In this document: one piece after another, positions 252-8,864 of the stretch
Position numbering within the stretch: position 1 is the stretch's first letter
Layout of the letters: every line of letters starts with the position of its first letter
NCBI GenBank assembly: GCA_023954175.1
Contig: JAMLIM010000028.1
Span: 1 to 41,924, forward strand
DNA: 41,924 bases
DNA from: Rhizobacter sp.
GTDB lineage: Bacteria > Pseudomonadota > Gammaproteobacteria > Burkholderiales > Burkholderiaceae_C
Reading direction: 5' to 3'
Position numbers and translations under genes: made by a program
The notes under the pieces: generated by a model
What the model was told of the DNA's origin: nothing
The model's database searches: none
The model's input: only the letters and a program-made list of their open reading frames with translations

Positions 252-3200
252 ATGAGAACCCGCAAGCAATCCGCGCCGCGCAAGACGGCCCGTGTTGCGC
301 GCACCGCGGGTCAGGTGGCAAGCGCGCTGCAGGATGCGCGCGCGCTCGCGTGGGCCGGCCAGCAGGAGGCCGCGGTCGAGGCCTGCACGCGGGCGCTGGC
401 CGCGGCCGCGCCGGCACAGCGGATGGCGCTGCTCGAACAGCGCGCCGAGTCGCTCGCCGCGCTCGGGCGCACACAGGACGCCGAGGCCGATGCTGCGGCG
501 ATGCTGGCGCTCGCCACCGAACATCCCGCGCAGGTCGATCTGATGCTCATCGCGCTCGACAGCCAGGCGGCGGTCCTGATCCGCCAGGGTCGATTGCAGG
601 CCGCGCTGAAGGCCGCCGCCGAGGCCGTCGAACGCACGCACGCCGCGAGCGGCGACGCCCAGCGCGCGCAGGCCCTCGTGCGCCTCGCCGAAGTCCAGTT
701 CCGCACGCTCGACAACGCCGACGCGATCGCCAACGCGCAGCGCGCGATCGCGATCTTCGATGCCCTCGGCGACACGCTGCGCCTCGGGCGCGCGTACTGG
801 GTGCTGGCCTTCGCGCATTCGCGCCAGTCGGACGCCACACCGTCGCGCGAGGCGGCGCTGCGCGCGCTCACGCTCGCGCGCGAGAGCGGCGATGCCCTCG
901 GCCAGGGCAATGCGTTGAACGTGTTGAGCTTCACGGTGCAGGACCTGGCCGAGCGCATCGCCTACACGCAGCAGGCGATCGCGGCGTTCGAGCGTTGCGG
1001 CCATCTCTTCGGCCGCGGCATGGCGATCGGCAACCTGTGCCTGGCGCTGGCCGAGCTCGGGCTTTATCGACGCGCCTACCGGCAGGGGCAGGAGCTGCTC
1101 GACCTCTGCCGCGACACCGGCGCGCGCCTGAACCTGACGCTGCAGCAAGGCGGCATGCTCGGCTGGCTGATCGCGCAGGGCGAGCTCGACACCGCGCGCG
1201 CGATCTGGCCCGAGTACGAGGCGCTCGTCACCGAGGTGAACGAGCCGCTGACGCGCGCACACCGCGCGATGTATGCGAGCGAGCTGGCGTATGCGTCGGG
1301 CGACACGAAGGCCGCGGTGCGCCACCTGAAGGCCGCGTTGACGGCGCCGGCCACCGAGAAAGCGGCGGACCGTCGCGTCGGCCTGACGGCGCTGGCGCGC
1401 GCGCTGCTCGCCGACGGCCAGGCCGCCGCCGCGCTCGAGGCGACCGAGGAGGCGACGCGGCTGCATCGCGCCCAGGGCCTCGGCCGCGCCGACCTCGGGC
1501 GCAGCCAGGAGATCTGGTGGCGGCACGCGCAGGCGCTCGCGGCGAACGACCGCGCCGAAGACGCCTGGGCGGCGCTGCAGCAGGCGCACGCACTGCTGCT
1601 CGAAGGCGTGCGCAACGTGCGCGACGAAGGGCTGCGCCGCAGCTACCTGAACAAGGTCGAGACCAACCGCGAGATCGTCTTCGCGTGGTTGCACGAGAGC
1701 GGCGCGCGCAAGCTGCCCAAGGCCGAGCGGCTGGCGCATCTGCGCATCGAAAGCACGCTGACCGAGCCCTTCAAGCGGCTCGTCGACACCGGCACGCGGC
1801 TCAACCAGCTGCGCGGCAGCGCCGAGTTGCAGGACTTCCTGATCGACGAGATCACCGAGCTCAGCGGCGCCGAGCGCGTGCTGCTCGTGCTCGACGGCGC
1901 CGACGGCGCGCGCATCGCCGGGGCGCTGCTGCCGCGTGGCGAAGACGCGGCCGACCTGCTGCGCGCCATCACGCCCTGGCTCGACGAGGCGCGCAGCACG
2001 CGCGAAGCGCGCCTGCGCCATGGGCCGCAGGGTGCGGCCGAGGTCGACCAGCGCTCCTGCCTCGTCGCGCCGCTCGTCGCGCAGGGCCGGGTCACGGGCT
2101 TCGTCTATGCCGATATCGAGGGCGCCTTCGGCCGCTTCGGCGACATCGATCGCGACCTGATCGGCATGCTCGCCGGGCAGGCCGCGGTGGCGCTGGACAA
2201 CGCGCAGTGGGCGCAGGGTCTCGAAGCCAAGGTCGCCGAACGCACCGGCGAATTGCGCGAGGCGCTGGAGCACCAGACCGCGACCGCCGAAGTGCTCAAG
2301 GCCATCAGCCGCTCCACCTTCGACCTCAAGACGGTTCTCACCACGCTGATCAGCAGCGCCACCCGGCTCTGCGAGGCGAGCCACGGCTTCCTGTTCCGGC
2401 CCGAAGGCGCGGCGCTGCGGCTGGCAGTTTCCCATGGCGCTGCACCGGAATTCGAAGCGCATATCGCGCACATCCCGGTCCGGCCCGAGCGCGGCTTTCT
2501 GATCGGCCGCGTCGCGCTCAGCCGGCAACCGGTGCAGATCCTCGACGCCTTGGCGGACCCGGACTACTCCCAGGCCGAGTCGCAGCGCCTCGGCGGCTAT
2601 CGCACGATGCTCGGCGTGCCGATGCTCAGCGGCGAGCATCTGGTCGGCGTGATCGTGGTCTGGCGCCAGGAAGTGCGTGCCTTCGGCAACAAGCAGATCG
2701 AACTGCTCACGACCTTCGCGGACCAGGCCGCGATCGCGATCGAGAACGTGCGGCTGTTCAACCAGACGCAGGAAGCGCTGGAAAGGCAGACCGCGACCGC
2801 CGACATCCTGAAGGTCATCGCCGAGTCGCCCGCCGACGTGCAGCCGGTGTTCGACATCATCGCCGAGCGCGCGGCGCACCTGACCGGGGCCGCCTACGCC
2901 CTGGTCTGCAACTACGACGGCGAGTGGATCCATGTGGTCAGCAGCTTCGGCGTCGATGCCGCCGGCCTCGATGAGGTGCGCACCGTCTACCCGTTGCAGC
3001 CGGGTTCGGCGACGATCACCGCGCGCGCCGTGCGCGATGCGGCCGTCGCGCAGGAGGCCGACGTGCTGGCCCTCGCCGACGCCGACTACCCCAGCAAGAA
3101 CGTCGCCCGCCGGGTCGGCTTTCGCAGCGTCCTCAGCGTGCCGATGCTGCGCGACGGCCGGCCCGTCGGCGCGATCTCGGTCATGCACCCGCGCACCGGC

Positions 3201-7828: not shown

Positions 7829-8864
7829 CTTCGCCGCGCGGCTGCTGGTTGCGGACGACAACAAGGTCAACCGCCTGCTGCTCACGCGCAGCCTGGAGTT
7901 GCAGGGGCATCGGGTGGCGTCGGCCGAGAACGGCCGCATCGCGCTCGAGATGCTGCGCGGCGAGAGCTTCGACCTGCTGCTGCTCGACATGGAGATGCCG
8001 GAGATGGACGGCTTCCAGGTGCTCGAGCAACTCGTCGCCGACGCCCAGCTGCGCGACCTGCCGGTGATCGTCACCTCGTCGCTCGAAGGCATCGCCCAGA
8101 TCGTGCGCTGCATCGAGCTCGGCGCCGAGGACTATCTGACCAAGCCGGTGAACCCGGTGCTGCTGAAGGCGCGCATCAACTCGAGCCTCGAGAAGAAGCG
8201 ACTGCGCGACCAGCAGAAGGAGTTGATCCGCCGCTTCGCGACCTCCGAGGTCGCGGAGGACCTGCAGCAATCGGGCTTCTCGCTCGGCGGCCGGCGCGTG
8301 CAGGGCACGGTGATGTTCTCCGACATCCGCGGCTTCACCGCGCTCGTCGAATCGCAGCCGCCGGAGGAGACGATCGAGCTGCTCAACACCTACTACACGC
8401 TGATGTTCGACGCGATCAGCGGCCAGGGCGGCGTCGTCAATCAGATGATCGGCGACGGCCTGATGGCGATCTTCGGCGCGCCGCTGCCGCTCGCCGACCC
8501 GCCCGGCGCGGCGGTGCGCGCGGCGCTCGACATGATCGAGATGATCGAACTGCTCAACGTCGAGCGCGCGGGTGTCGACAAGCCGCCGCTCGCGATCGGC
8601 ATCGGCATCGCATCGGGCGAGGTGGTGGCCGGCTACACCGGCACCCAGCAGCGCGCCACCTACACCTGCATCGGCGACACCGTGAACCTGGCGGCGCGGC
8701 TGGAGGCGCACACCAAGGTGGCGCAGCGCGCGATCCTGATCGACGGCGCGACGCGCGAAGCGATCGGCGAAGCGCTCACCGCAGACGCGCTCGGCCCGGT
8801 GCCCTTCAAGGGCAAGGCCGAGCCGGTCGAGGTGTATGCGGTGGAAAAGCTGCGGCGCCACTGA
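7821..8864 (+). CDS. Response regulator with class III adenylate/guanylate cyclase output domain
   Basis: A 347-residue two-domain protein. Residues 6-125 are a receiver with acidic pair D12/D13, predicted phospho-Asp56 (LLLDMEMPEMDG) and the conserved lysine K108 (YLTKPVN). A short helical linker leads to a class III cyclase domain (about 155-345) with both metal-binding aspartates, D168 (FSDIRGFT) and D212 (MIGDGLMAIFG), and the CIGDTVNLAARLE segment of the catalytic site. It probably makes cyclic AMP or cyclic GMP when its receiver is phosphorylated by the upstream relay. One oddity is Gln208 at the base-recognition position four residues before D212, where adenylate cyclases usually have Lys and guanylate cyclases Glu, so the substrate is uncertain. 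It is the last gene of the operon; a strong hairpin follows. Confidence 0.93.
   Translation: MADFAARLLVADDNKVNRLLLTRSLELQGHRVASAENGRIALEMLRGESFDLLLLDMEMPEMDGFQVLEQLVADAQLRDLPVIVTSSLEGIAQIVRCIELGAEDYLTKPVNPVLLKARINSSLEKKRLRDQQKELIRRFATSEVAEDLQQSGFSLGGRRVQGTVMFSDIRGFTALVESQPPEETIELLNTYYTLMFDAISGQGGVVNQMIGDGLMAIFGAPLPLADPPGAAVRAALDMIEMIELLNVERAGVDKPPLAIGIGIASGEVVAGYTGTQQRATYTCIGDTVNLAARLEAHTKVAQRAILIDGATREAIGEALTADALGPVPFKGKAEPVEVYAVEKLRRH

What the first reader, a model, noticed from the sequence alone, without database searches (positions are those of the whole stretch)
252..8864. Eight-GAF, two-receiver kinase coupled by Hpt to a receiver-cyclase
Three start/stop-overlapping genes encode a whole His-Asp-His-Asp relay whose last receiver drives a nucleotide cyclase. 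Eight tandem GAF domains behind a TPR region in a single 2414-residue kinase is exceptional, and a dedicated phosphorelay-to-cAMP/cGMP circuit is not a standard textbook arrangement. The GAF units may read several ligands or form a signal-integrating rod.
Basis: partly seen in the sequence, partly recalled or inferred. Interest (0 to 1): 0.7.

Follow-up and report, generated by a model that had tools for sequence, protein, structure and literature searches.

The report
GAF-array phosphorelay driving a nucleotide cyclase
Three neighbouring genes encode what looks like a complete phosphate-passing chain from a giant soluble sensor kinase to an enzyme that probably makes a cyclic-nucleotide messenger, and the same cassette, with very different numbers of sensor modules, recurs in scattered bacteria.

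Summary
In detail: a 2414-aa TPR-8xGAF-HisKA-HATPase-REC-REC kinase, a 111-aa Hpt protein and a 347-aa REC-class III cyclase, start/stop-overlapping. The cassette recurs. Of 41 non-duplicate close cyclases, 39 have an Hpt upstream (38 distinct Hpt genes) and 33 a hybrid kinase, in Burkholderiales, alphaproteobacteria and Chloroflexi MAGs. Phospho-accepting and cyclase catalytic residues are invariant wherever aligned. Eight GAFs is ordinary; relatives carry 0 to 14. Less expected: the back end (REC2, Hpt, cyclase) is conserved while the GAF front end is reshuffled, even within one genus; inter-GAF linkers come almost only as 24+7n residues, as in a coiled-coil rod; 13 of 41 modules have two or three kinases upstream, and this genome probably does too; the base-selecting lysine of adenylate cyclases is absent in 41 of 41, so cAMP versus cGMP is open. 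Phosphotransfer, sensing and cyclase activity are inferred. New variant of a known kind.

The parts
252..7496 (+). Soluble hybrid sensor kinase, 2414 aa: TPR region (about aa 20-500), 8 GAF, HisKA (His1905), HATPase_c, REC1 (Asp2198), REC2 (Asp2340)
   Evidence: Pfam; residues read; REC aspartates aligned
1767..2231 (+). GAF1, divergent, next to the TPR region (aa about 506-660)
   Evidence: 74% identical to GAF1 of a same-genus TPR kinase
2250..5891 (+). GAF2-GAF8 array, period 516-534 nt, linkers with a QTAT motif; GAF2~GAF6 50%, GAF3~GAF7 58%, GAF4~GAF5 62% identical
5907..6671 (+). DHp and ATPase kinase core, His1905
6687..7076 (+). REC1 (less conserved than REC2; 7 related kinases have one receiver only, of the REC2 type)
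7116..7493 (+). REC2, probable phosphodonor to the Hpt protein
7493..7828 (+). Stand-alone Hpt protein, His58, overlapping the kinase by 4 nt
7821..8864 (+). REC (Asp56) - class III nucleotidyl cyclase (metal Asp168/Asp212, Asn289/Arg293, base-site Gln208/Thr282), overlapping hpt by 8 nt

Best explanation
A cytoplasmic multistep phosphorelay whose output is a second messenger. GAF domains stacked on a dimeric coiled-coil rod sense cytosolic small molecules (ligands unknown) and pass one combined conformational signal down the rod to the DHp helix. His1905 is phosphorylated. The phosphate goes through the kinase receivers, most likely with REC2 as the exit, to Hpt His58 and on to Asp56 of the REC-cyclase. 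Phosphorylation changes the cyclase dimer through the REC-cyclase linker helix and switches synthesis of cAMP or cGMP. In a third of the relatives, and probably in this genome, two or more such kinases stand before one Hpt-cyclase, so the Hpt would be a fan-in point. Shown: domain order, gene overlap, recurrence of the cassette, invariance of phospho-accepting and catalytic residues, linker-length quantisation, mosaic front ends. Inferred: every phosphotransfer step, sensing by the GAFs, dimerisation, the sign of regulation, the product.
For: Domains and overlaps. Co-occurrence: Hpt upstream of 39 of 41 non-duplicate cyclases, 38 of 39 gaps within -40 to +60 nt (the exception, L025b, is a second cyclase sharing the L025 Hpt); a hybrid kinase upstream in 33 of 41. 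Residues: Asp56, Lys108, Asp168, Asp212, Thr282, Asn289, Arg293 in 41 of 41; Hpt His58 and Lys61 in 39 of 39 rows. REC1 and REC2 Asp in 42 of 42 two-receiver kinases; 7 of 7 single-receiver kinases have the REC2 type; mean identity REC2 76%, REC1 62% over 29 loci. Cyclase and Hpt distance matrices correlate best (r 0.78) of ten component pairs. Rod: linkers 24+7n in 81 of 82 and 122 of 124 scored of 137 adjacent pairs; last GAF to DHp His 39 in 35 and 46 in 1 of 36 scored; AlphaFold2 gives single helices of 46 and 67 residues through GAF7-GAF8-DHp, pLDDT 90. Fan-in: 13 of 41 modules with 2-3 kinases upstream; an 11-GAF kinase cut by a contig end within a DHp region 88% identical to this one.
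Against: Nothing biochemical was done. L031 and L112 have the cyclase but no detectable Hpt; L112 also has Val for the conserved receiver Thr85. L038, L062 and L112 show no kinase hit in 3.5, 10 and 11.9 kb upstream of the cyclase. The first acidic residue of the cyclase REC is Glu instead of Asp in 5 of 41 and a gap in 1. Most linker lengths are shared by descent, the profile cutoff was permissive, one of the 122 (length 73) is probably spurious, and two linkers of 35 residues (both GAF1-GAF2 of TPR kinases, this one included) break the rule of seven. PMC1592074 (passages) says the then-known prokaryotic inter-GAF coiled coils are antiparallel, which speaks against a parallel rod by analogy. 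The REC-cyclase model has pTM 0.64, so domain orientation is not settled. The cNMP-GAF motif NKxnFx3DE is in 0 of 186 units by a strict pattern, 1 by a loose one, so no ligand is suggested.
Confidence: 0.82

Rival explanations
1. The three genes are neighbours but Hpt is a hub for other receivers; the cyclase REC is fed mainly by another kinase or acts as a phosphate sink.
For: The own genome has many REC proteins (49 matches to the REC-cyclase query), and relays can be shared (RdeA, PMC11988041 passages).
Against: The search with this Hpt found only two weak relatives in the own genome, so a spare close Hpt is not on hand. Hpt-cyclase adjacency holds in 38 of 39 cases across distant taxa, and cyclase and Hpt distances correlate most strongly of ten component pairs.
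Confidence: 0.12
2. The cyclase is a guanylate cyclase rather than an adenylate cyclase.
For: The guanylyl cyclase Cya2 is among the best PDB matches by sequence and by fold. The ATP-selecting Lys is absent in 41 of 41. GCs replace the Lys, and may have Thr at the second site (PMC4215837 passages).
Against: GCs in that paper have Glu at the Lys site; here it is Gln 35, Leu 5, Met 1. The same paper says some ACs have Thr at the second site too. Adenylyl cyclases CyaB and Spirulina CyaC match the fold nearly as well.
Confidence: 0.45
3. The GAF array is a passive spacer or scaffold whose copy number drifts by recombination, with sensing done by the TPR part or partner proteins.
For: Copy number 0-14; 12 of 39 kinases without a 5' open end have no GAF by my profile. 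No cNMP-GAF motif.
Against: Linker lengths stay in steps of seven, which a passive spacer would not need. GAF units fall into types shared between loci (159 of 186 best matches at another locus).
Confidence: 0.2
4. Chance: the GAF hits are an artefact of a low-complexity repeat, or the gene overlap is coincidental.
For: The GC-rich genome gives long spurious ORFs on both strands.
Against: Pfam GAF E-values of 1e-118 to 1e-119, a confident fold prediction, and conservation of the cassette in distant taxa.
Confidence: 0.01

Closest known systems
Cyanobacterial CyaC (Anabaena/Spirulina)
   Same: Class III cyclase activated by histidine-kinase phosphotransfer (Kasahara and Ohmori 1999: title seen in a reference list; AphC-CyaC passage in PMC4284465). 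Spirulina CyaC is among the fold matches.
   Different: Recalled, not looked up: CyaC fuses kinase, receivers and cyclase in one chain, without a separate Hpt. Here there are three proteins, a GAF array, and no Lys at the base site.
Dictyostelium RR-HK - RdeA - RegA relay, and ACB
   Same: Hybrid kinase to Hpt (RdeA H65) to the receiver of a cyclic-nucleotide enzyme; several kinases into one Hpt; ACB is a REC-cyclase (PMC11988041 passages).
   Different: RegA degrades cAMP; a eukaryote. ACB is said there to act independently of RdeA.
BarA/TorS-type hybrid kinases
   Same: HisKA-HATPase-REC core; TorS and BarA are the best partial NCBIfam matches.
   Different: No row shown (25 of 143) reaches its curated cutoff. 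Here there is no membrane sensor, and a separate Hpt with a cyclase output.
Tandem-GAF phosphodiesterases and the cyanobacterial cyclase GAF pair (1ykd)
   Same: GAF pair joined by a long helix; PDE2A and 1ykd are top fold matches of the GAF7-GAF8-DHp model.
   Different: Eight GAFs (up to 14 in relatives) instead of two; kinase output; no NKFDE motif.
REC-cyclases beside HK-REC-REC kinases (rhizobial L137, L138; unnamed L140, L141)
   Same: Hybrid kinase beside a REC-cyclase.
   Different: No Hpt detected; Lys (L137, L138) or Glu (L140, L141) at the base site; 39-40% identity.

Membership tests
Multistep (His-Asp-His-Asp) phosphorelay | Kinase His, receiver Asp, Hpt His, terminal receiver Asp all present | tested here: met
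Multistep (His-Asp-His-Asp) phosphorelay | Phosphotransfer along the chain | not testable with these tools
   needs purified proteins
Class III nucleotidyl cyclase | Two metal Asp and the Asn/Arg transition-state pair | tested here: met
   Asp168, Asp212, Asn289, Arg293 in 41 of 41; fold matches 2w01, 3r5g, 1wc1
Canonical adenylate cyclase | Lys at the first purine-specifying site (with Asp, in some ACs Thr, at the second) | tested here: not met
   Gln208/Thr282; Lys in 0 of 41; rule from PMC4215837 passages
Canonical guanylate cyclase | Glu at the first purine-specifying site | tested here: not met
   Glu in 0 of 41
CyaC-type cyclase | Kinase, receivers and cyclase in one polypeptide (recalled) | tested here: not met
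   three separate genes
cNMP-binding tandem GAF | NKxnFx3DE motif (recalled) | tested here: not met
   0 of 186 units strict, 1 loose
Signalling-helix (S-helix) proteins | Long helix joining sensory domains to the catalytic domain | tested here: met
   predicted helices of 46 and 67 residues; dimer orientation not tested
Signalling-helix (S-helix) proteins | Match to the S-helix sequence profile | not tested
   profile not run; family known here from passages of PMC1592074

The most novel reading that the evidence does not exclude
An undescribed cross-phylum signalling family with a fixed back end (REC2, Hpt, REC-cyclase) and a plug-in sensor front end: GAF modules are added, removed and swapped on a heptad-locked coiled-coil rod, often in several kinases converging on one Hpt. 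The cyclase, lacking both the ATP-selecting Lys and the GTP-selecting Glu, makes its messenger by a non-canonical base-recognition mode (dual, cGMP or another cNMP).
Probability: 0.35. Interest if true: 0.75.

Novelty: new variant of a known kind. Interest (0 to 1): 0.5.

Why it matters
If the rod reading is right, these kinases are natural experiments in signal integration. The same output is driven by 0 to 14 sensor modules, and inter-module spacing is kept to steps of seven residues, so the rule for passing a signal through a GAF stack can be tested by adding and removing whole units. The fixed Hpt-cyclase pair gives a simple readout. The missing base-selecting lysine in a whole conserved family also makes substrate choice in class III cyclases directly testable.

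Tried and rejected
Contig C17 (the best REC match outside the window's contig that sits in a giant frame) was fetched as a possible upstream neighbour. It gave receiver hits only, no GAF hit, looks like a ChpA-type chemotaxis kinase (name recalled), and shares only a 104-nt and a 24-nt stretch with the first 12 kb of the window. Rejected; C97 fits instead.

Recent tandem duplication as the sole source of the GAF array: rejected, because 159 of 186 units have their best match at another locus, 24 in the same kinase and 3 in another kinase of the same locus.

GAFs as cAMP/cGMP feedback sensors: no motif support. REC1 as a degenerate receiver: rejected, its Asp is intact in 42 of 42.

Plasmid carriage: at E<=1e-40 only four rhizobial records, 37-40% identity; two of the four neighbourhoods were examined. 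Viral collections were not searched and no tree was built. The first residue count used a wrong offset and was replaced.

Rows dropped before counts: L055 (cyclase cut by the contig end; it has Hpt and a kinase), L056 (44%; it has Hpt and a kinase) and L113 (cyclase split in two; it has Hpt and a kinase) fell to the 150-bit cyclase filter. L107 and L111 were duplicates of L028 and L045. L139 and L167 were found later and are not in the 41; both have the three genes. L057, L058, L060, L061 and L102 carry cyclases outside the family and gave no Hpt hit (L057 also by tblastn); a divergent Hpt could be missed because the query was this window's Hpt.

GAF counts come from a profile built on this window's own units. 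Pfam gives 11 rather than 12 for L105 and agrees for L139 (14) and L049 (11). A stricter cutoff lowers some counts (L110 11 to 9, L104 10 to 8).
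Full report
What is there. Window 252-8864 holds three overlapping + strand genes: a 2414-aa kinase (TPR, eight GAF, HisKA, HATPase_c, two REC), a 111-aa Hpt protein and a 347-aa REC-class III cyclase (Pfam). Overlaps are 4 and 8 nt. His1905, Hpt His58 and cyclase Asp56 are in place. GAF1 is divergent; GAF2-8 repeat every 516-534 nt with a QTAT linker motif, and the pairs 2/6, 3/7 and 4/5 are 50, 58 and 62% identical. There is no clear membrane span.

How common. In the genome search the cyclase is found in 11 of 150 genomes of the family at E<=1e-60, 2 of 274 of the class at E<=1e-90 and 4 of 398 of the phylum at E<=1e-60. All three counts include the window's own genome; two of the four in the last are 39-40% relatives without a detected Hpt. 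By record title these 33 are mostly Burkholderiales or other betaproteobacteria (Variovorax, Rubrivivax, Rhizobacter, Paucibacter, Pelomonas, Inhella and MAGs), plus Sulfitobacter, Ruegeria and a Hyphomicrobiales MAG, and three Anaerolineales/Chloroflexi MAGs. The Chloroflexi records are all MAGs, so binning error cannot be excluded; a MAG titled Klebsiella and one titled Thermoleophilia are probably mislabelled or contaminated (my judgement). The distribution is patchy, which suggests horizontal transfer (inference; no tree was built).

The cassette. From the loci modules gave 41 non-duplicate cyclases, this window included. An Hpt lies upstream of 39 of 41 (38 distinct Hpt genes, since two cyclases share one). 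38 of 39 Hpt-cyclase gaps lie within -40 to +60 nt, 21 of 39 overlapping; kinase-Hpt gaps lie within that range in 28 of 32. A hybrid kinase is upstream in 33 of 41. Of the eight without, five (L025 twice, L030, L037, L046) have under about 2 kb upstream of the cyclase; L038, L062 and L112 have 3.5, 10 and 11.9 kb and show none. GAF number in 39 kinases without a 5' open end: 0 in 12, otherwise 1 to 12 by my profile. Pfam confirms 14 in L139, outside the 41, and 11 in L049, and gives 11, not 12, in L105. So eight GAFs is ordinary here.

Conservation. Asp56, Lys108, metal Asp168 and Asp212, Thr282, Asn289 and Arg293 are invariant in 41 of 41; Hpt His58 and Lys61 in 39 of 39 rows. Other receiver positions vary a little: the first acidic residue is Glu in 5, and Thr85 is Val in L112, the member without Hpt or kinase. 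Both kinase receivers keep their Asp in 42 of 42 two-receiver kinases. The kinase His is present in 48 of 51 and the other three rows are alignment gaps. All seven kinases with one receiver have the REC2 type, and REC2 (mean identity 76%) is more conserved than REC1 (62%) in 29 loci. This points to REC2 as the exit to Hpt. Distance matrices correlate best between cyclase and Hpt (r 0.78; the other nine component pairs 0.50-0.66), though all share a common history.

Front end versus back end. In a same-genus genome (L104), cyclase and Hpt are 89% and 86% identical to the window's, but the kinases differ: a TPR-2-GAF-HK-REC kinase and a 10-GAF-HK-REC-REC kinase (2 and 8 GAFs at the stricter cutoff). 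The window's kinase looks like a mosaic of both. Its TPR region (47%), GAF1 (74%) and REC2 (87%, against 82% to the other) match the first best; its HK (81%, against 69%), REC1 (65%) and GAF7 (80%) match the second; the remaining GAFs reach 40-55%. Four other pairs with cyclases 83-86% identical and kinases on both sides also differ in GAF number or kinase set, for example 6 versus 3 GAFs in two Variovorax. 159 of 186 GAF units find their best match at another locus. The sensor end is reshuffled; the output end is not.

A rod in register. The distance from the end motif of one GAF to the start motif of the next is 24+7n in 81 of 82 pairs found by motif and in 122 of 124 scored of 137 adjacent pairs by profile (24 in 102, 31 in 18, 38 in 1, 73 in 1, which is probably spurious; 35 in 2, both GAF1-GAF2 of TPR kinases, this window's included; 13 unscored). 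From the last GAF to the DHp His it is 39 in 35 and 46 in 1 of 36 scored, 1 unscored. The profile cutoff was permissive, and common descent explains much of the 24s; the empty classes 25-30 and 32-34 are the telling part. AlphaFold2 on GAF7-GAF8-DHp (27 sequences, pLDDT 90, pTM 0.67) gives unbroken helices of 46 and 67 residues; top fold matches are the PDE2A GAF pair, phytochromes and the cyanobacterial cyclase GAF pair. Heptad-spaced linkers in PAS/LOV kinases are recalled, not looked up. PMC1592074 (passages) describes a signalling helix between sensory and catalytic domains, but also says the then-known prokaryotic inter-GAF coiled coils are antiparallel, which does not favour a parallel rod.

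Fan-in. 13 of 41 modules show two or three hybrid kinases upstream of one Hpt-cyclase. In the own genome, contig C97 ends inside an 11-GAF kinase (my profile), within a DHp region 88% identical in protein and DNA to the window's. The window begins at a contig end. The same-genus order (multi-GAF kinase, TPR kinase, Hpt, cyclase) makes C97 the likely upstream neighbour; this is inference, and the contigs were not joined.

Product. The cyclase fold matches Cya2 (guanylyl), CyaB and CyaC (adenylyl). ACs carry Lys and Asp at the purine site, some with Thr at the second position; GCs carry Glu at the first and various residues at the second (PMC4215837, passages). Here the first site is Gln in 35, Leu in 5 and Met in 1 of 41, never Lys or Glu; the second is Thr in 41 of 41. 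The assignment of the two sites rests on recalled motifs in my alignment. The own genome has 6 Guanylate_cyc and 15 cNMP_binding matches, so candidate cNMP receptors exist; no link to this cyclase was tested.

Known or new. Phosphotransfer-activated cyclases are known (CyaC: title in a reference list, and a passage). An Hpt relay onto a cyclic-nucleotide enzyme is known in Dictyostelium (RdeA-RegA; passages). Ten full-text searches listed no paper whose title or abstract start describes a GAF-array kinase-Hpt-REC-cyclase cassette; they cover only open-licence PMC papers, three of the lists were capped (15 of 162, 10 of 19 and 8 of 22 papers shown), and supplements were not searched. No NCBIfam row shown reaches its cutoff for any of the three proteins (25 of 143, 2 of 2 and 25 of 98 rows shown). 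I call it a new variant of a known kind.

Noticed in passing
window 29-146: 2.8 copies of a 42-bp imperfect tandem repeat at the very start of the contig, just upstream of the kinase.
   Followed up: partly
L166 7616-13912 (G000 contig C97): A second giant kinase with 11 GAF domains (own profile) in the same genome, cut by the contig end inside the DHp region.
   Followed up: partly
   Followed up: partly
L113 (G017): The REC-cyclase gene is split: parts matching residues 2-175 and 163-343 lie about 13 kb apart on opposite strands, as after an inversion.
   Followed up: no
L025 471-2468: Two REC-cyclase genes in tandem behind one Hpt.
   Followed up: no
L167 15087-17001: A further GAF-bearing open frame (4 GAFs in the part held) directly downstream of a REC-cyclase.
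   Followed up: no
L137, L138 (rhizobial plasmids): REC-cyclases beside HK-REC-REC kinases and a stand-alone REC, no Hpt detected, Lys at the base site: a related but different wiring.
   Followed up: partly
window 8949-9242 (-) and 9491-12432 (-): Downstream genes look like a GYD-domain protein and an EmrAB-type MFS/HlyD efflux pair (names recalled from the translations, not searched).
   Followed up: no
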